NCBI GenBank assembly: GCA_023205875.1
Contig: CP060754.1
Location: 1 to 64,000, forward strand
Length of the DNA: 64,000 nt
Reading direction: 5' to 3'
Source: Chloropicon primus
Lineage: Eukaryota > Chlorophyta > Chloropicophyceae > Chloropicales > Chloropicaceae
Below the pieces are notes generated by a model. That model worked only from the letters and a program-made list of their open reading frames with translations, was not told the origin of the DNA and searched no databases. This document shows positions 42,876 through 52,258 of this stretch, one piece after another; within the stretch, counting starts at the first letter, position 1; each line of letters starts with the position of its first letter. The position numbers and the translations under genes were made by a program.

Positions 42876-43922
42876 TCAGGCACACGGCCTCAGGTTCTTG
42901 TTTCCCCAGCCGAAAGGGTTGTCGTCCTTGAACTCGTCCCACTCCCTCGCCTTCTTGATGCACTCCTCGTCTTCGCTGTGATCATCGTCGCTGCAGCACT
43001 TTTGGCCCGATCCCCTGTCCTGCTGGGCATCCCTGGCCCTCGCTTCCTCCCTCTCCCTCATGCGCTGCAACTCCTGCTCCCCAAACTCCTCGACCGTCAT
43101 GGTGTACGGCAAGTGGCTCTGCTTGAACACGCCTTGGGCGAACCTCTCCCTGGCCGCTTGCTGCGAAAGCTGGCCGGGCTGTATTGTGAACATCCCTTTG
43201 ATCCTCCCGTCGTCGCCGTTGACCCTCGGCCTCTCCCTCCCCCGGTTCACCTCCACCTCCCTTCCGCTTCCGCCGGCGGCCAGCTCCTCCTGCCTCCTCT
43301 TCGTGAACTCGAGGATCTCCACCTCCTTCTGGAGGGACGCGTACTGCTGGTAGGCGCTCATGGCGGAGCTGTTGACCTGGAGCAGGGACAGGGCCCTCGT
43401 TGTGTCCTCGTCCTCCGCTTCCGCAACGAGGGAAAGGGTTTCCATCGCTTGCCTCAGCTCCTTCTGCCGACGGTAGAGGGCGATCTTCTCCTCCCTGCCA
43501 AAGGTGATCGCGGCCGCGCCATCCATGCCCTCCACCAAGGACTTGACCTTGTCCTCCAGGAGCCCCTTGTCCTTGCACTGGCGAGCGAAAGCCAGGAAGG
43601 AGGCCAGGCCCTGCCTCAAGCACACGAGTCTCTCGTCCACAGGCCTGTCGGCCTCGACGTTCGTGTACGCCACGCCCAAGTAATACGGAATCAGCAAGTA
43701 CTTGATCGATCCCGTGGTTATATCGTCCTTGTCCTCGTTGTCCGAGAACAACGCCAGCGCTTGGACCATCGCCTCGCACGCTTTCAGTTCCTTGACGAGT
43801 TCCTTCGTCGTCGTTTTCCCTTGTTTCCCTCCCCCTTCCAACCCCTCGCACGCCTCCACGCACAACCCGAACCTCTCCTTCAGCGTCCCCCCCTCCCCCT
43901 CCCCTCCCCCTTCCCCCACCAT
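42876..43922 (-). CDS. TAP46: TAP46/TAP42/alpha4 PP2A-associated regulatory protein
   Basis: A single exon of 348 residues, typical for the family. Markers are KYLLIPYYLGVAYTNV, the REEKIALYRRQKELRQ helix, MFTIQPGQLS and the diagnostic C-terminus REWDEFKDDNPFGWGNK. TAP42/46 binds the catalytic subunits of PP2A-type phosphatases and acts downstream of TOR. Its promoter and first ~10 bp of coding sequence border the duplicated region to the right, and a copy of its start codon region appears again at 45960-45975. Confidence 0.96.
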   Translation of the reverse strand: MVGEGGGEGEGGTLKERFGLCVEACEGLEGGGKQGKTTTKELVKELKACEAMVQALALFSDNEDKDDITTGSIKYLLIPYYLGVAYTNVEADRPVDERLVCLRQGLASFLAFARQCKDKGLLEDKVKSLVEGMDGAAAITFGREEKIALYRRQKELRQAMETLSLVAEAEDEDTTRALSLLQVNSSAMSAYQQYASLQKEVEILEFTKRRQEELAAGGSGREVEVNRGRERPRVNGDDGRIKGMFTIQPGQLSQQAARERFAQGVFKQSHLPYTMTVEEFGEQELQRMREREEARARDAQQDRGSGQKCCSDDDHSEDEECIKKAREWDEFKDDNPFGWGNKNLRPCA

Positions 43923-44010
43923 CCTCTCCTCTCTCCTCTCTGCGTTGGGCTGGCGCGCGCTGCTGTCGGCTGTGTGCGTTCTCTCTGGCGCCTAGCGCGG
44001 ACGACGATCG

Positions 44011-44249
44011 ATGATGGGCGAGGAGGCATCCAATGGAGAGAGGAGAGGATGGTGGGGGAAGGGGGAGGGGAGGGGAAATACGACAAGATTCGTCGCGAGA
44101 ACTTTTCAGCGGTACCTTGGTTGACCGAATCGACGCTCGGAGTCATCGTGGAGGCTCATTGGAGTGAGGAGGATGGTGGAGGGCAAGGGGTGGGAGTACT
44201 GGGTGAAGGTGGGAGTGGGAGGAGGGGTGGGGGTGGTTGCAGCGGGGTG
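44011..44249 (+). pseudogene. Duplicated 5' fragment of the EXD2-like gene (copy 1)
   Basis: The segment from the ATGATGGGCGAGGAGG start region to the sequence around GTTGCAGCGGGGTG repeats the beginning of the gene at 49862. The copy has a G-rich expansion that shifts the frame, and it breaks off into the 3' side of the sulfotransferase gene. It is not expected to encode a protein but may retain promoter activity antisense to that gene. Confidence 0.8.
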
Positions 44250-44373
44250 AAGGTGTGTAATTGTCCTTGAATCGCCTCTCGAACTCTCCAAATCTAACCT
44301 TTTTGTCTTCATAATCATAATAACCAACTTGGCAACGAGAGCTTTTGGATTGCCATTATTTGTTCGTTTGGTC

Positions 44374-45749
44374 TCATGCGCAGATGATCTTGTCATCTCT
44401 CGGTGTACACGTCTCGAGCAAATCCCTGCTACGCAAGAACTCTTCACCTGGTATACCGAACTGCATGCCAGCGATCTCAACTTCGATGCACCCGCGCGAA
44501 ATCCATCCATTCTCGATCTCAACAGGTTCTGTGGTAGTGCCGAAATCGGCTATCTGTAACTGTGGCTTGCTGCCTGGCGGGCAGCGGGCATTAGCTTCCA
44601 AAGTCCCTCCATCGGGATCACAAGTAGGCGTTGATTCAAGACACGTCAAGTCTGCAAACTCAACGTCGTATGTATAACCGTATCGATGTGCCATTGTCCA
44701 TGCTCTGTAGGCCAGATCTGGGTCCACAGTCAGCAGTTGCTGCCAGGTGAATTGAGCACGATGCTCTCGATTGTTCCAAGTCTTAGCCACTTCTTTTGTG
44801 GACTTGGTCTTGTTATATCTATGGTCCAAGCCAGCCATCACGAAGATGTCATGTATCTCAACAGTTTCTATCTGATACGTAGGGAGGTTCAGCTGTGTGT
44901 GTTTTCGATGATGTGCGATCATTCCTAGTCAGAAAAAGTGTGCAAGCAAGACTCTAATTGACAATGTACTTACCTTGTCCAAGAACTCGTGCCATTCGAC
45001 CCAGAACTCCAACCCGAGCAACGCCTTGTTGTTATCCTTGACGTAAGAAGAGTTCAACGAAATGTGCCTCCTGAGGAATGCTATCTGCTCGTGGCGATCG
45101 AGCTCGGGAGGTGCGCAGATACTCGAGAGAGAAGCCAGGGGTTGCCTAAGTTGGTGCAATACCTATACAGCCAAGTGAGTTAGTAGACAAGATGAGCTTG
45201 AAGGTTAAGACTCGGGGCACATACCTGTCTAAACTTGTAACCATCAGCCTTCTCAGGTCCGAACGACTCTTCATCTTCGACTGCAAATATCCAAGATGAT
45301 GTGCCATCAGCAGACGGTCTTGGAACCCAATCGTTTGCAATCTCAAGTCCATACGCAGACAATTCCTTCGCAATGTATTGGGTCGCACTGCGAGGCGTGC
45401 CAGTGACGAGTAATGGCCACTTGGCTTCTTCAGTTTTGCATCGTTTCGAATACATCCGTGACTGTAAAACGAGGTCGCACGAGGGTAGTTCACAAGTCTC
45501 GATTACCCAAGACGACTCGTAAGACGTCTTAGACGAGAACAAGCGCTCTCCCAAACCCCGAGTCACGAGCGGCTTCGACATCACCGAGCGCGTTGGCAAC
45601 GTGGGCCTGAACACTGCGAAACCCACAACCGCCGCGAGTATAACGCCCGCGACCAGAACCAACTTCGTGTCCAGCTTAGCGTTTCCGGAGAGTATCCCTG
45701 TAGCCCTCGAACAGAAGAGAGTCCCTTGCCTCCGCTTGCTCGCGATCAT
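44374..45749 (-). CDS. Sulfotransferase-like type II membrane protein, copy 1
   Basis: Three exons, 45749-45225, 45162-44974 and 44892-44374, with 62- and 81-bp introns (GTATGT and GTAAGT donors), give 410 residues. A short cytosolic tail and signal-anchor helix (LVLVAGVILAAVVGFAVF) lie near residues 30-47. PLLVTGTPRSATQYIAKEL matches the 5'-PAPS-binding loop of sulfotransferases, and RQPLASLSS in exon 2 resembles the RxP...S 3'-phosphate site. The lumenal remainder has six or more Cys. It is probably a Golgi enzyme sulfating glycans, but the usual Gly/Lys in the loop is altered (PRSATQ), so activity is unproven. A third-codon check of start: the upstream frame has only TTG before this ATG. 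Confidence 0.82.
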
Positions 45750-46075
45750 GCTCCTCTTCAAGTTTGCAGTGCACTCCTGTCCGCCAAATACTCACCACTG
45801 GGTAGTTTCGTTCGAGCGAGGACTCAAGCGAAAGACGAAGAGATAATCCTTCAACCTGGCGTTCTCTCTCCCGCACCAACGCACGCCCTCCACGCCGCCT
45901 CCCCCTACGTGTCTCTCTCGCGCGCCCTTTCAGATGCTTCCACGTCCTCAAACCTCACGTCTCCCCCACCATCCTCTCTCCTCTCTCCCCTTCCTCTCTC
46001 CTCTCTGCGTTGGGCTGGCGCGCGCTGCTGTCGGCTGTGTGCGTTCTCTCTGGCGCCTAGCGCGGACGACGATCG

Positions 46076-46314
46076 ATGATGGGCGAGGAGGCATCCAATG
46101 GAGAGAGGAGAGGATGGTGGGGGAAGGGGGAGGGGAGGGGAAATACGACAAGATTCGTCGCGAGAACTTTTCAGCGGTACCTTGGTTGACCGAATCGACG
46201 CTCGGAGTCATCGTGGAGGCTCATTGGAGTGAGGAGGATGGTGGAGGGCAAGGGGTGGGAGTACTGGGTGAAGGTGGGAGTGGGAGGAGGGGTGGGGGTG
46301 GTTGCAGCGGGGTG
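46076..46314 (+). pseudogene. Duplicated 5' fragment of the EXD2-like gene (copy 2)
   Basis: Same content as the fragment at 44011-44249, including the same frame-shifting G-rich expansion. This shows both came from one duplication event. Confidence 0.8.
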
Positions 46315-46437
46315 AAGGTGTGTAATTGTCCTTGAATCGCCTCTCGAACTCTCCAAATCTAACCTTTTGTCTTCATAATCATAATAACCAACTTGGCAAC
46401 GAGAGCTTTTGGATTGCCATTATTTGTTCGTTTGGTC

Positions 46438-47813
46438 TCATGCGCAGATGATCTTGTCATCTCTCGGTGTACACGTCTCGAGCAAATCCCTGCTACGCAA
46501 GAACTCTTCACCTGGTATACCGAACTGCATGCCAGCGATCTCAACTTCGATGCACCCGCGCGAAATCCATCCATTCTCGATCTCAACAGGTTCTGTGGTA
46601 GTGCCGAAATCGGCTATCTGTAACTGTGGCTTGCTGCCTGGCGGGCAGCGGGCATTAGCTTCCAAAGTCCCTCCATCGGGATCACAAGTAGGCGTTGATT
46701 CAAGACACGTCAAGTCTGCAAACTCAACGTCGTATGTATAACCGTATCGATGTGCCATTGTCCATGCTCTGTAGGCCAGATCTGGGTCCACAGTCAGCAG
46801 TTGCTGCCAGGTGAATTGAGCACGATGCTCTCGATTGTTCCAAGTCTTAGCCACTTCTTTTGTGGACTTGGTCTTGTTATATCTATGGTCCAAGCCAGCC
46901 ATCACGAAGATGTCATGTATCTCAACAGTTTCTATCTGATACGTAGGGAGGTTCAGCTGTGTGTGTTTTCGATGATGTGCGATCATTCCTAGTCAGAAAA
47001 AGTGTGCAAGCAAGACTCTAATTGACAATGTACTTACCTTGTCCAAGAACTCGTGCCATTCGACCCAGAACTCCAACCCGAGCAACGCCTTGTTGTTATC
47101 CTTGACGTAAGAAGAGTTCAACGAAATGTGCCTCCTGAGGAATGCTATCTGCTCGTGGCGATCGAGCTCGGGAGGTGCGCAGATACTCGAGAGAGAAGCC
47201 AGGGGTTGCCTAAGTTGGTGCAATACCTATACAGCCAAGTGAGTTAGTAGACAAGATGAGCTTGAAGGTTAAGACTCGGGGCACATACCTGTCTAAACTT
47301 GTAACCATCAGCCTTCTCAGGTCCGAACGACTCTTCATCTTCGACTGCAAATATCCAAGATGATGTGCCATCAGCAGACGGTCTTGGAACCCAATCGTTT
47401 GCAATCTCAAGTCCATACGCAGACAATTCCTTCGCAATGTATTGGGTCGCACTGCGAGGCGTGCCAGTGACGAGTAATGGCCACTTGGCTTCTTCAGTTT
47501 TGCATCGTTTCGAATACATCCGTGACTGTAAAACGAGGTCGCACGAGGGTAGTTCACAAGTCTCGATTACCCAAGACGACTCGTAAGACGTCTTAGACGA
47601 GAACAAGCGCTCTCCCAAACCCCGAGTCACGAGCGGCTTCGACATCACCGAGCGCGTTGGCAACGTGGGCCTGAACACTGCGAAACCCACAACCGCCGCG
47701 AGTATAACGCCCGCGACCAGAACCAACTTCGTGTCCAGCTTAGCGTTTCCGGAGAGTATCCCTGTAGCCCTCGAACAGAAGAGAGTCCCTTGCCTCCGCT
47801 TGCTCGCGATCAT
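46438..47813 (-). CDS. Sulfotransferase-like type II membrane protein, copy 2
   Basis: Exons 47813-47289, 47226-47038 and 46956-46438. All three exons encode exactly the same 410 residues as copy 1, and the introns are the same too. The identity points to a very recent duplication or ongoing gene conversion. Short reads could not tell the two apart. Confidence 0.82.
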
Positions 47814-48057
47814 GCTCCTCTTCAAGTTTGCAGTGCACTCCTGTCCGCCAAATACTCACCACTGGGTAGTTTCGTTCGAGCGAGGACTCAAGCGAAAGAC
47901 GAAGAGATAATCCTTCAACCTGGCGTTCTCTCTCCCGCACCAACGCACGCCCTCCACGCCGCCTCCCCCTACGTGTCTCTCTCGCGCGCCCTTTCAGATG
48001 CTTCCACGTCCTCAAACCTCACGCGTTCTCTCTGGCGCCTAGCGCGGACGACGATCG

Positions 48058-48206
48058 ATGATGGGCGAGGAGGCATCCAATGGAGAGAGGAGAGGATGGT
48101 AAGATTCGTCGCGAGAACTTTTCAGCGGTACCTTGGTTGACCGAATCGACGCTCGGAGTCATCGTGGAGGCTCATTGGAGTGAGGAGGATGGTGGAGGGC
48201 CTGCAG
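48058..48206 (+). pseudogene. Duplicated 5' fragment of the EXD2-like gene (copy 3, further deleted)
   Basis: It matches the two other fragments but has lost the G-rich segment with part of the following sequence, and most of the stretch before the sulfotransferase 3' end. Confidence 0.75.
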
Positions 48207-48307
48207 CGCCTCTCGAACTCTCCAAATCTAACCTTTTTGTCTTCATAATCACAATAACCAACTTGGCAACGAGAGCTTTTGGATTGCCATTATTTGTTCG
48301 TTTGGTC

Positions 48308-49603
48308 TCATGCGCAGATGATCTTGTCATCTCTCGGTGTACACGTCTCGAGCAAATCCCTGCTACGCAAGAACTCTTCACCTGGTATACCGAACTGCAT
48401 GCCAGCGATCTCAACTTCGATGCACCCGCGCGAAATCCATCCATTCTCGATCTCAACAGGTTCTGTGGTAGTGCCGAAATCGGCTATCTGTAACTGTGGC
48501 TTGCTGCCTGGCGGGCAGCGGGCATTAAGTCCCTCCATCGGGATCACAAGTAGGCGTTGATTCAAGACACGTCAAGTCTGCAAACTCAACGTCGTATGTA
48601 TAACCGTATCGATGTGCCATTGTCCATGCTCTGTAGGCCAGATCTGGGTCCACAGTCAGCAGTTGCTGCCAGGTGAATTGAGCACGATGCTCTCGATTGT
48701 TCCAAGTCTTAGCCACTTCTTTTGTGGACTTGGTCTTGTTATATCTATGGTCCAAGCCAGCCATCACGAAGATGTCATGTATCTCAACAGTTTCTATCTG
48801 ATACGTAGGGAGGTTCAGCTGTGTGTGTTTTCGATGATGTGCGATCATTCCTAGTCAGAAAAAGTGTGCAAGCAAGACTCTAATTGACAATGTACTTACC
48901 TTGTCCAAGAACTCGTGCCATTCGACCCAGAACCAACCCGAGCAACGCCTTGTTGTTATCCTTGACGTAAGAAGAGTTCAACGAAATGTGCCTCCTGAGG
49001 AATGCTATCTGCTCGTGGCGATCGAGCTCGGGAGGTGCGCAGGTTGCCTAAGTTGGTGCAATACCTATACAGCCAAGTGAGGTAGACAAGATGGCTTGAA
49101 GGTTAAGACTCGGGGCACATACCTGTCTAAACTTGTAACCATCAGCCTTCTCAGGTCGGAACGACTCTTCATCTTCGACTGCAAATATCCAAGATGATGT
49201 GCCATCAGCAGACGGTCTTGGAACCCAATCGTTTGCAATCTCAAGTCCATACGCAGACAATTCCTTCGCAGTGTATTGGGTCGCACTGCGAGGCGTGCCA
49301 GTGACGAGTAATGGCCACTTGGCTTCTTCAGTTTTGCATCGTTTCGAATACATCCGTGACTGTAAAACGAGGTCGCACGAGGGTAGTTCACAAGTCTCGA
49401 TTACCCAAGACGACTCGTAAGACGTCTTAGACGAGAACAAGCGCTCTCCCAAACCCCGAGTCACGAGCGGCTTCGACATCACCGAGCGCGTTGGCAAGAA
49501 CACTGCGACCAAGCGAGAAGAAGAACCAAGAAGCGTTTCCGGAGAGTATCCCTGTAGCCCTCGAACAGAAGAGAGTCCCTTGCCTCCGCTTGCTCGCGAT
49601 CAT
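48308..49603 (-). pseudogene. Sulfotransferase-like gene, copy 3, degraded
   Basis: The gene order and both introns are as in copies 1 and 2. Exon 3 has an 8-bp loss near 48527, exon 2 has a 2-bp loss near 48933 and a ~22-25-bp loss near 49042, and exon 1 has lost most of the signal-anchor coding region near 49497-49530. Several of these shift the frame, so no full protein can be made. Only a few base changes are seen in the remaining sequence (for example Gly to Arg near 49157 and Ile to Thr near 49271). The copy is therefore a young pseudogene. Confidence 0.85.
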
Positions 49604-49861
49604 GCTCCTCTTCAAGTTTGCAGTGCACTCCTGTCCGCCAAATACTCACCACTGGGTAGTTTCGTTCGAGCGAGGACTCAAGCGAAAGACGAAGAGATAA
49701 TCCTTCAACCTGGCGTTCTCTCTCCCGCACCAACGCACGCCCTCCACGCCGCCTCCCCCTACGTGTCTCTCTCGCGCGCCCTTTCAGATGCTTCCACGTC
49801 CTCAAACCTCACGCTGTCGGCTGTGTGCGTTCTCTCTGGCGCCTAGCGCGGACGACGATCG

Positions 49862-52258
49862 ATGATGGGCGAGGAGGCATCCAATGGAGAGAGGAGAGGA
49901 TGGTGGAGGAAATACGACAAGATTCGTCGCGAGAACTTTTCAGCGGTACCTTGGTTGACCGAATCGACGCTCGGAGTCATCGTGGAGGCTCAAGGAGGAT
50001 GGGTGGGAGTACGAGTTGCAGCGGGGTGGGCATGGACGAGGTGGATGGAGACCAAGGCGCGCAAGACGCACCAACAGAAAGGGAAGAAAGGAAGGACCAA
50101 GGAGAAGAAGAAGAAAAATCATCCGAAACGGATTGTTGCCCAAAAGGAGGCGACAACAATCAAGATTCCTCCCTCGTTCGACGTGGGTTGCGGGCTCACC
50201 ATAAAGGGATTGATCGAGTCCGCCGATGAGGCCACGGTGACCTCGAGGCTCTTCCCTCAACGGGCTGCAGGAGGGACGGCGAAGAGTGGAGCACATCGAT
50301 ATCGGCATCGATGGGTGGACAGCGTTCCAGGACTCTCAAGCTTGAGAGCGGCGTTAGAGGGGGAGAGGGAGATCTCATTGGACATGGAGCACCACCACTA
50401 CTACAGTTTCCTTGGCGTCACGTGCTTGCTGCAGATCTACGTGCCAGGCAAGCAAATCGCCTACTTGGTTGACGCAATCTCACTCAAGAGCGAGGAGGTG
50501 AAGGAGTACTTAGGGCCCGTCCTGGAGAATGCAGAGGTCCTGAAAGTTATTCACGGCGCCGGAAACGACGTTTTGTGGCTTCAGAGGGACTTCAAGGTGC
50601 ACCTGGTGAACATCTTTGACACCGAACAGGTGGCAAAGATCCTGCAGAAGGAGAAGAGCTCGTTGGGCTCGTTGCTCGTTATCTACTTTGGTGTCACCAA
50701 AGAAACGAAGTACCAGATGGCGGATTGGAGACAAAGGCCCCTGGATCCCGGCATGGTTGAATACGCGCTGATGGACATTTATTTCCTTCCCTCCCTGAAA
50801 CTCATCTTGGCAAGGGAGTTGATAGAGACGAGCCTCCGCGTGGCTTGCAAGCCAAGCAAGTATGTGCTCGCGTACACAAGTTCTCAGAAGGTCGCGCTCA
50901 GAACTTACAAGCACAAGAGGAGAAAGCCCGAGAAGCTGGCCATGTCAATCCTCAGGAAGGGAAAGAAGAGGAATTGGATCGACGAAGGGGTGTCGGTTGA
51001 TCTCAGGCTTTGGAAGCGTTTGGCCAAGTGGAGAAACGACGTTGCCGAGGCCATCGATGTCTCCTTGCACGCGCTGATGCCAGACTACGTCTTATGCCAG
51101 GTTGCTTTGCGGGCGAGCTCGTCCCTGACGGAGAAGAGTCTCTTGGAGTTCCTCTTCCCGTACATGGACAAAATCATCTTCAAAGAAAAGATCCAGCCAC
51201 ATCTCGCGAGCCTTCTCCGAGCTTTGCTGTGCGACAACACCGTTGTGAGCGAACAAGGTAGAGGAGACAAAGCACATGGAAAGAAAACCAGGGAAATGAA
51301 GAGGCAGCAGTACGTCGAGCGCTTTCGGCGAAAGACTCCGGCGTACGACAGCTGCAAAATCTTGAGCAAGACTGGAAAGCCTTTGAGCTACTGCGACAGA
51401 AAGAAATTGCAGTGGTACTTGAAGGAGAAGCTTGCCACCCTGGTGGAAAGCGACGGGGAAGGCTATCCTTCGATTATTCGACTGAACTTTCAGCACAACT
51501 CGACGGATCAGCAAAAGAGATCACCAGGCGTTTATCCCAAGCGCAAAGGAAACTATTGTGTGGGTTGCGGAGAACCGAAGAATTACTTGCGCTGGCACGT
51601 CATACCGACTATCTATCGGCATAACTTTCCGATTGGCCTGAAGTCACATCGTTCGGACGACATTGTTGTCCTTTGTGTTCATTGCCACGAAGTGGCATCG
51701 GCGGCTGCCGATAGATTGAAGAGCGAGATTGCAAAGGAGCTCAGTATCCCTCTGCTCGCCGTTGACAGCAGTAACGGTCCGACCTGGAAAGTCTGGACGA
51801 GAGCGCACAAAGCGGCCATGGTTCTGGGAGTTCAGGGGGATAGAATTCCAACGAAAAGGGAAGCAGAACTGAAGCAAGATGTTGGCAACGCTTTCGAGGG
51901 AATTTCTGCGGCCGAGGTAAACATGGCCCACGTTGTGGCGATTCTGTCTAGCTCAAAGAGTAGCAAGGCAAAGCAAGTGGTAGATCGACTGTTGGAGTCA
52001 GTAAAGAACGGAGGTGGAGAGGCAAATGGGGCAGGTCCAAAGAGCTCTCAAAAGATGAGCGTGCGCCGACCGGATGCGGCAACGCCTGGCAAAAAACGTT
52101 CTGGCCAGTACGTCCACGGCGCGAAGGTGGTGGGCCACTTGGTCGAGCACGGCGGTGAGCAGGCGCTGCTAGATCTCATCGTGAGGTTCAAGAAGCGTTT
52201 CGTGGAGTCTTTGTCCCCAAAACATCTTCCTGAAGGGTGGTCGCTGTCGACCACGTGA
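49862..52258 (+). CDS. EXD2: EXD2-like 3'-5' exonuclease (RNase D fold) with C-terminal HNH-like zinc region
   Basis: A single exon of 798 residues from 49862. The first ~60 residues lie inside the duplicated segment, so the ATG at 50045 is a plausible alternative start. The DEDDy exonuclease domain (~160-330) has LDMEHH (Asp, Glu), VIHGAGNDVLWLQRDF (Asp) and YALMDIYFL (Tyr, Asp). A basic linker follows. The C-terminal part has NYCVGCGEPKNYLRWHVIP and DDIVVLCVHCHEVA, the CxxC...CxxC block of EXD2. EXD2 acts on DNA ends in recombination and on RNA in mitochondria; which applies here is unknown. It lost its neighbouring TAP46 partner to the intervening array. Confidence 0.88.
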   Translation: MMGEEASNGERRGWWRKYDKIRRENFSAVPWLTESTLGVIVEAQGGWVGVRVAAGWAWTRWMETKARKTHQQKGKKGRTKEKKKKNHPKRIVAQKEATTIKIPPSFDVGCGLTIKGLIESADEATVTSRLFPQRAAGGTAKSGAHRYRHRWVDSVPGLSSLRAALEGEREISLDMEHHHYYSFLGVTCLLQIYVPGKQIAYLVDAISLKSEEVKEYLGPVLENAEVLKVIHGAGNDVLWLQRDFKVHLVNIFDTEQVAKILQKEKSSLGSLLVIYFGVTKETKYQMADWRQRPLDPGMVEYALMDIYFLPSLKLILARELIETSLRVACKPSKYVLAYTSSQKVALRTYKHKRRKPEKLAMSILRKGKKRNWIDEGVSVDLRLWKRLAKWRNDVAEAIDVSLHALMPDYVLCQVALRASSSLTEKSLLEFLFPYMDKIIFKEKIQPHLASLLRALLCDNTVVSEQGRGDKAHGKKTREMKRQQYVERFRRKTPAYDSCKILSKTGKPLSYCDRKKLQWYLKEKLATLVESDGEGYPSIIRLNFQHNSTDQQKRSPGVYPKRKGNYCVGCGEPKNYLRWHVIPTIYRHNFPIGLKSHRSDDIVVLCVHCHEVASAAADRLKSEIAKELSIPLLAVDSSNGPTWKVWTRAHKAAMVLGVQGDRIPTKREAELKQDVGNAFEGISAAEVNMAHVVAILSSSKSSKAKQVVDRLLESVKNGGGEANGAGPKSSQKMSVRRPDAATPGKKRSGQYVHGAKVVGHLVEHGGEQALLDLIVRFKKRFVESLSPKHLPEGWSLSTT

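What the first reader, a model, noticed from the sequence alone, without database searches (positions are those of the whole stretch)
43912..50040. Three tandem sulfotransferase units, each beginning with a copy of the TAP46/EXD2 divergent promoter and EXD2 start
Seen directly: the TAP46 start region, the promoter and ~240 bp of the EXD2 5' end recur at the head of every unit, and the intact EXD2 lies after unit 3. The array therefore separates two genes that were once divergent neighbours. Each sulfotransferase gene is flanked on both sides by the same host segment, like a very long target-site duplication. The three right junctions all have the same left end (CCTCACG) but different right ends. 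Capture of a gene into the promoter followed by tandem amplification is inferred. The arrangement also gives three extra promoters pointing antisense into sulfotransferase genes.
Basis: partly seen in the sequence, partly recalled or inferred. Interest (0 to 1): 0.75.

Follow-up and report, generated by a model that had tools for sequence, protein, structure and literature searches.

The report
Sulfotransferase array with copied promoters
In a tiny marine green alga a probable sulfotransferase gene has multiplied in tandem together with the promoter of its two neighbours; the array looks like ordinary local duplication, but the copied promoter carries a directional DNA element that recurs across the genome, often in pairs about 182 bases apart.

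Summary
The array is real in the assembly: three sulfotransferase units alternate with four copies of the TAP46/exonuclease intergenic segment, P-S-P-S-P-S-P. Units 1 and 2 are practically identical; unit 3 and the last P differ mainly by gaps. The genome is Chloropicon primus RCC138, judged by size. Both intact copies encode a spliced 410-aa protein that an MMETSP transcript matches but for one residue. Two corrections: the duplicated segment is probably promoter/5' UTR, not an "EXD2 start", and the TAP46 start codon recurs only in P2. Best reading: one event left S between two P copies, then recombination between P copies amplified it. The gaps in unit 3, P3 and P4 may be uncorrected Nanopore error. 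The surprise lies in the copied promoter: an oriented element whose 16-base core has 529 near-matches genome-wide against 14 for the reversed control. Tandem core pairs number 61 at 165-195 bp, none at 196-226 and 12 at 134-164. The sulfotransferase promoter carries a variant of it. The listings of four paper searches showed no description of the element.

The parts
42876..43922 (-). TAP42/TAP46-family gene, intact left neighbour
   Evidence: PF04177 E 1.8e-61
43896..44249 (.). P1: intergenic (presumed bidirectional promoter) segment, copy 1; overlaps the TAP46 start
44085..44154 (+). element A in P1, pointing antisense into sulfotransferase copy 1
   Evidence: profile match 54.3 bits; genome-wide family
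44250..45959 (-). S1: sulfotransferase cassette 1; exons 45749-45225, 45162-44974, 44892-44374
   Evidence: splice model; 410 aa, one residue different from MMETSP protein P0005
45777..45860 (-). element B in the promoter of S1; its ACCCAGTGGTG motif starts 54 bp before the S1 start codon
   Evidence: 69.7 bits; distance
45960..46314 (.). P2: copy 2 of the intergenic segment, includes the TAP46 start codon; identical to P1 over 331 bp
46150..46219 (+). element A in P2
46315..48023 (-). S2: sulfotransferase cassette 2, same as S1 except one T in a run outside the exons; exons 47813-47289, 47226-47038, 46956-46438
47841..47924 (-). element B of S2
48024..48206 (.). P3: shortened copy 3 of the intergenic segment (3 gaps, 1 substitution against P1)
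48101..48170 (+). element A in P3
48207..49813 (-). S3: sulfotransferase cassette 3, reading frame broken as assembled (5 substitutions, 9 gap events against S1)
49631..49714 (-). element B of S3
49814..50028 (.). P4: shortened copy 4 of the intergenic segment, presumed promoter of the exonuclease gene
49919..49988 (+). element A in P4; its TACC motif starts 98 bp before ATG 50045
50045..52258 (+).
   Evidence: PF01612, PF00570; similarity from residue 98 of the long frame

Best explanation
A sulfotransferase gene S with its own promoter (element B) came to lie between two copies of the TAP46/exonuclease intergenic promoter P. This first step is inferred. The direct P copies (183-355 bp as they now stand) then served as homology for unequal recombination, which multiplied the unit to P-S-P-S-P-S-P and keeps units 1 and 2 the same; this too is inferred. 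S1 and S2 are probably working genes for a membrane-anchored, perhaps Golgi, sulfotransferase. TAP46 should be driven from P1 and the exonuclease from P4. P1-P3 leave three copies of element A pointing antisense into the 3' ends of the S genes; whether they fire is unknown. S3, P3 and P4 have lost short stretches, by decay or by assembly error.
For: Array anatomy; P1=P2 over 331 bp and S1=S2 apart from one T in a run. S1 and S2 each encode 410 aa; an MMETSP transcript protein covers all of it with one difference, R69L (the entry does not name its organism). The gene model P0006 (HOP50_01g00260, Chloropicon primus) occurs on 2 contigs, the longest of 1,876,603 bp, the length of the largest CCMP1205 chromosome, so the gene probably predates the split of the two strains. 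In the whole genome the only protein match outside the array is a weak one on C9 (E 0.003, 35% over 65 residues), so amplification is local. P4 seems really to lack bases: the related elements on C10 and C5 carry TTGGAGTG, as P1-P3 do and P4 does not. The elements are oriented: 34 of 43 fetched loci outside the array have an ORF of 200 aa or more starting within 450 bp in the element's direction, 15 of 43 the other way, 10 of them both (some loci are one promoter counted twice; 30 of 44 A sites and 20 of 20 B sites were fetched, the 7 array sites left out). The genome holds other local tandem copies, e.g. 1.94 kb at 98.6%, offset 2.07 kb, on C13.
Against: No outgroup genome or raw reads could be examined, so ancestral TAP46-exonuclease adjacency and copy number are untested. 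A purely tandem process predicts one S|P junction, but three different ones are seen. The divergence of unit 3 is mostly gaps, which plain decay would not lead one to expect. No expression data on the antisense elements. Nine of 43 element loci have no qualifying ORF downstream.
Confidence: 0.62

Rival explanations
1. Assembly artefact in part: the array exists, but the gaps of S3, P3 and P4 (and perhaps the exact copy number and two of the three junctions) are uncorrected Nanopore consensus errors. Short reads from a true repeat copy map better to the correct copies, so a faulty copy is never polished.
For: RCC138 was assembled with Canu from Nanopore reads, polished with Nanopolish and Pilon, and edited by hand (PMC12301720 section 21). 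Gap-heavy, substitution-poor difference: 9 gap events and 5 substitutions in S3, 9 gaps and 3 substitutions in P3 plus P4. By my reading 6 of the 9 P3 and P4 gaps lie in G-rich tracts, and the junction losses in a CT tract.
Against: A stretch of about 400 bases between two gaps of S3 has no difference from S1. P4 borders unique sequence that short reads could anchor. Several S3 gaps are not in simple sequence.
Confidence: 0.35
2. A larger block (S-TAP46-P or similar) was duplicated in tandem and the extra TAP46 was then deleted; no capture into a promoter took place.
For: P2 starts with a remnant of TAP46 around its start codon.
Against: Needs more steps; I noticed no other TAP46 remnant in the array when reading it, but did not search for one.
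Confidence: 0.2
3. One replication accident with repeated template switching built the whole array at once: copying left S at a fixed point (CCTCACG) and re-entered P at different points, also leaving the small gaps.
For: Fixed S end, varying P starts, one shared base (G) at two of the junctions as I read them, and a complex change at 45600-45675.
Against: Units 1 and 2 are practically identical while unit 3 is not; a single event predicts similar damage in all.
Confidence: 0.12
4. S is a mobile cassette with a fixed end that inserted several times.
For: The same CCTCACG end at all three right junctions.
Against: The left junction is one and the same in units 1 and 2; no further copy of S was found in this genome, only short matches to its promoter and 3' flank and one weak protein match on C9; I recognised no mobile-element gene in the unit.
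Confidence: 0.04

Closest known systems
Tandem gene arrays of Chloropicon primus (PMC6731263, passages seen)
   Same: [quoted passage not shown] C13 gives an in-genome parallel.
   Different: Here the unit includes the shared promoter region of two other genes, which it separates.
PAPS-dependent sulfotransferases
Long direct repeats flanking an insertion (target-site duplication)
   Same: The same host segment on both sides of S.

Membership tests
Tandem gene duplication array | Head-to-tail near-identical units at one locus | tested here: met
   Three units, spacing 2064 and about 1790-1870
Tandem gene duplication array | Same junction in every unit (expected of a fresh array, not defining) | tested here: not met
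   Left junction identical in units 1 and 2; right junctions differ; loss of a CT tract could explain it
Tandem gene duplication array | Copy number supported by reads | not testable with these tools
   No reads held
Transposon insertion with target-site duplication | Dispersed copies with the same ends | tested here: not met
   No full copy of S outside the array in this genome; only short flank and promoter matches and one weak protein match
Transposon insertion with target-site duplication | Empty site in a relative | not testable with these tools
   No Chloropicon relative held as DNA
PAPS sulfotransferase | Sulfotransferase fold | tested here: inconclusive
   [not shown]
PAPS sulfotransferase | Match to a curated family profile (helpful, not defining) | tested here: not met
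   No Pfam family up to E 1
PAPS sulfotransferase | 5'-phosphosulfate loop-like motif (recalled) | tested here: met
   T118 P119 R120 S121 T123 the same in 20 of 21 aligned sequences, gap in one
PAPS sulfotransferase | Enzyme activity | not testable with these tools
   -

The most novel reading that the evidence does not exclude
Chloropicon has an undescribed directional promoter element of roughly 35-85 bp (shared core CGTCTCGNGNTCTTTC, followed by variant A, B or others) whose tandem copies sit one nucleosome repeat apart (median 182 bp). Promoter fragments bearing it are copied to other genes, so the P-S array is one outcome of promoter copying in this genome, along with a 242-bp pair on C10 and a 405-bp pair on C14.
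Probability: 0.5. Interest if true: 0.72.

Novelty: new variant of a known kind. Interest (0 to 1): 0.5.

Why it matters
The array shows how a shared promoter can be split and multiplied when a gene is amplified between divergent neighbours, and it predicts antisense transcription into each copy. The element in the copied promoter may matter more: a directional promoter element with strict spacing near one nucleosome repeat would make chromatin-guided promoter design in a compact algal genome directly testable (nucleosome and transcription-start maps), and it points to promoter fragments moving between genes.

Tried and rejected
Rfam on 12 loci (36,172 bases): one match, to SNORD29, 26.3 bits against a gathering score of 48, so no known RNA family. 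Satellite explanation for the element: around A, pairwise identity outside about -75 to +30 is 0.24-0.33, near random; around B it tapers more slowly (0.3-0.5 out to about 120 bp), as about 11 of the 17 B loci belong to one gene family by eye. In 28 of the 33 neighbour pairs tested, the downstream non-core stretch is 0.41-0.66 alike against 0.45-0.62 for shuffles; 7 of the 28 upstream stretches are 0.69-0.97 alike (no shuffles made for these), so some pairs do come from local duplication. Coding-repeat explanation: only 21 of 61 spacings are multiples of three. Transposon between the C10 promoter copies: the stretch holds three ORFs of 220 aa or more, not put to a family search; one looks like a rhodanese-type protein by eye, and I recognised no mobile-element gene. 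Donor of S: only a 69-bp, 80% match of its 3' flank on C12, near an ORF that looks exostosin-like by eye, not tested. A search with a 143-aa piece of unit 3 gave one relative, P0026 on a 758-bp ENA contig, and no counterpart of unit 3 in another strain. Papers: four searches listed nothing on Chloropicon promoters by title and start of abstract; apart from the two genome papers none of the listed papers was opened. In PMC12301720 'promoter' and 'motif' have 0 occurrences, in PMC6731263 'promoter' 0 ('motif' not asked). Of PMC12301720 I saw the abstract, passages and sections 20 and 21; of PMC6731263 passages.
Full report
What the sequence shows. From left to right: a TAP42-family gene on the minus strand, P1, S1, P2, S2, P3, S3, P4, and a 3'-5' exonuclease gene on the plus strand. 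P is the intergenic segment (354, 355, 183 and 215 bp as I delimit it); S is a cassette of 1.6-1.7 kb with a gene on the minus strand. Alignment by events: P1 and P2 have no difference in the 331 bp aligned; left of that, in the CT-rich tract, they do differ. S1 and S2 differ by one T in a run; the one mismatch listed is the base next to the S2|P3 junction. S3 differs from S1 by 5 substitutions and 9 gap events; P3 from P1 by 3 gaps and 1 substitution; P4 from P1 by 6 gaps and 2 substitutions. All three S|P junctions end S at CCTCACG and enter P at different places.

Where it is. The genome has 17,584,162 bases in 20 contigs and its first contig is 1,855,637 bases, the values of Chloropicon primus RCC138 in Table 1 of PMC12301720 (passages seen). 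The window is the first 64 kb of contig 1; CCTAAA does not occur in its first 1000 bases, in keeping with the paper's remark that one end of chromosome 1 lacks telomere repeats.

The host segment. I think it is promoter and 5' UTR. The frame is not kept among copies (gaps of 17, 8, 13, 22, 12, 2 bp). Similarity to two other exonucleases begins at residues 98 and 102 of the long frame, and the identical database protein begins at residue 175. The segment holds a sequence, element A, that occurs upstream of unrelated ORFs. The exact 13-mer TACCTTGGTTGAC is found 44 times in the genome, 4 of them in the array, and 0 times when read backwards. The promoter of S holds element B, whose 17-base pattern occurs 20 times, 3 of them in the array, control 0. 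In the whole 64-kb window only the array gives profile matches to A (4) or B (3) at E 1 or better.

Elements A and B share a core, CGTCTCGNGNTCTTTC: 529 matches with at most one mismatch against 14 for the reversed control. They are oriented: of 43 fetched loci outside the array, 34 have an ORF of at least 200 aa starting within 450 bp in the element's direction, 15 have one the other way, and 10 of these have both (not all loci are independent; 14 of the 44 A sites were not fetched). The ORFs next to A look like diverse genes, several of housekeeping type, and about 11 of the 17 next to B look like one F-box/ankyrin family; both by eye, not searched.

Spacing. Among fetched loci, 31 of 33 same-strand neighbours closer than 800 bp are 168-193 bp apart; the other two, 142 and 223, are at one C15 locus. 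With the core alone, 14 of 16 same-strand neighbours closer than 1200 bp are 171-191 apart, the others 223 and 933. Genome-wide, with a looser core, 61 tandem pairs lie at 165-195 bp (median 182, s.d. 6.0), 0 at 196-226 and 12 at 134-164, 6 of the 12 in one C18 array; reversed controls are 0 in all three. Not all 61 are independent: some belong to triple arrays or to duplicated regions such as C13 and C19. The number is close to a nucleosome repeat (recalled). That these are promoter elements placed by nucleosomes is inference.

Promoter fragments also occur in duplicate before different ORFs: 240 of 242 bp identical on C10, 5.76 kb apart, and a 405-bp pair at 99% on C14, 218 kb apart, with unrelated flanks.

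How the array most likely arose. One event placed S between two P copies. After that the direct P copies are natural partners for unequal exchange, which gives P-S units and keeps units 1 and 2 the same. Left junctions are identical in units 1 and 2, so repeated insertion of S is unlikely. The different right junctions are best explained by loss of the CT-rich tract that follows CCTCACG in P2. Two independent losses with the same left edge are less odd if the tract itself is the weak point, either in the cell or in Nanopore base calling. RCC138 was assembled from Nanopore reads with short-read polishing (section 21 of PMC12301720), a setting in which one faulty copy of a repeat can escape correction. 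I therefore do not claim that unit 3 is a true pseudogene. P4 does lack 8 bases (TTGGAGTG) that P1-P3 and the related C10 and C5 elements have, if the assembly is right there.

Function. P1 should serve TAP46 and P4 the exonuclease; S1 and S2 have an element B whose motif starts 54 bp before the start codon. Element A in P1-P3 points antisense into the S genes. Whether these extra elements are active was not testable.

Verdict. The array is a new case of a known kind, tandem duplication, with an unusual feature: it duplicates and divides the shared promoter region of two other genes. The element found in that promoter is the part that deserves follow-up.

Noticed in passing
genome-wide in C. 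primus RCC138; window 44085-44154, 45777-45860 and copies: Oriented promoter-proximal element with core CGTCTCGNGNTCTTTC: 529 near-matches against 14 control; tandem pairs 61 at 165-195 bp, 0 at 196-226, 12 at 134-164.
   Followed up: partly
C10:314007-314248 and C10:319767-320008 (L085): A 242-bp segment with two A elements, 240 of 242 bases identical, precedes two different ORFs 5.76 kb apart.
   Followed up: partly
L059 1432-1836 and L061 1178-1582 (C14, 218 kb apart): A 405-bp segment with element A at 99% identity before two different ORFs, flanks unrelated.
   Followed up: partly
window 43896-43936 and 44035-44075: Perfect 41-nt inverted repeat, 98 nt apart; one arm covers the TAP46 start codon. 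The right arm is shortened in P3 and P4.
   Followed up: partly
L029 and L030 (C19:300578-303679 and 313571-316672): At least 3.1 kb duplicated at 99.97% identity, 13 kb apart.
   Followed up: no
C18:415474-416438: Array of core elements at 149-162 bp spacing, shorter than elsewhere.
   Followed up: no
window 44284-44352 and C12:8755-8819: The 3' flank of the sulfotransferase has an 80% match on C12 near the contig start, after an ORF that looks exostosin-like by eye; a possible hint of where the cassette came from.
   Followed up: partly
window 45600-45675 versus 49498-49531: The membrane-segment region of unit 3 is scrambled (several gaps and an 11-bp insertion) while neighbouring stretches are nearly perfect; unexplained.
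   Followed up: no
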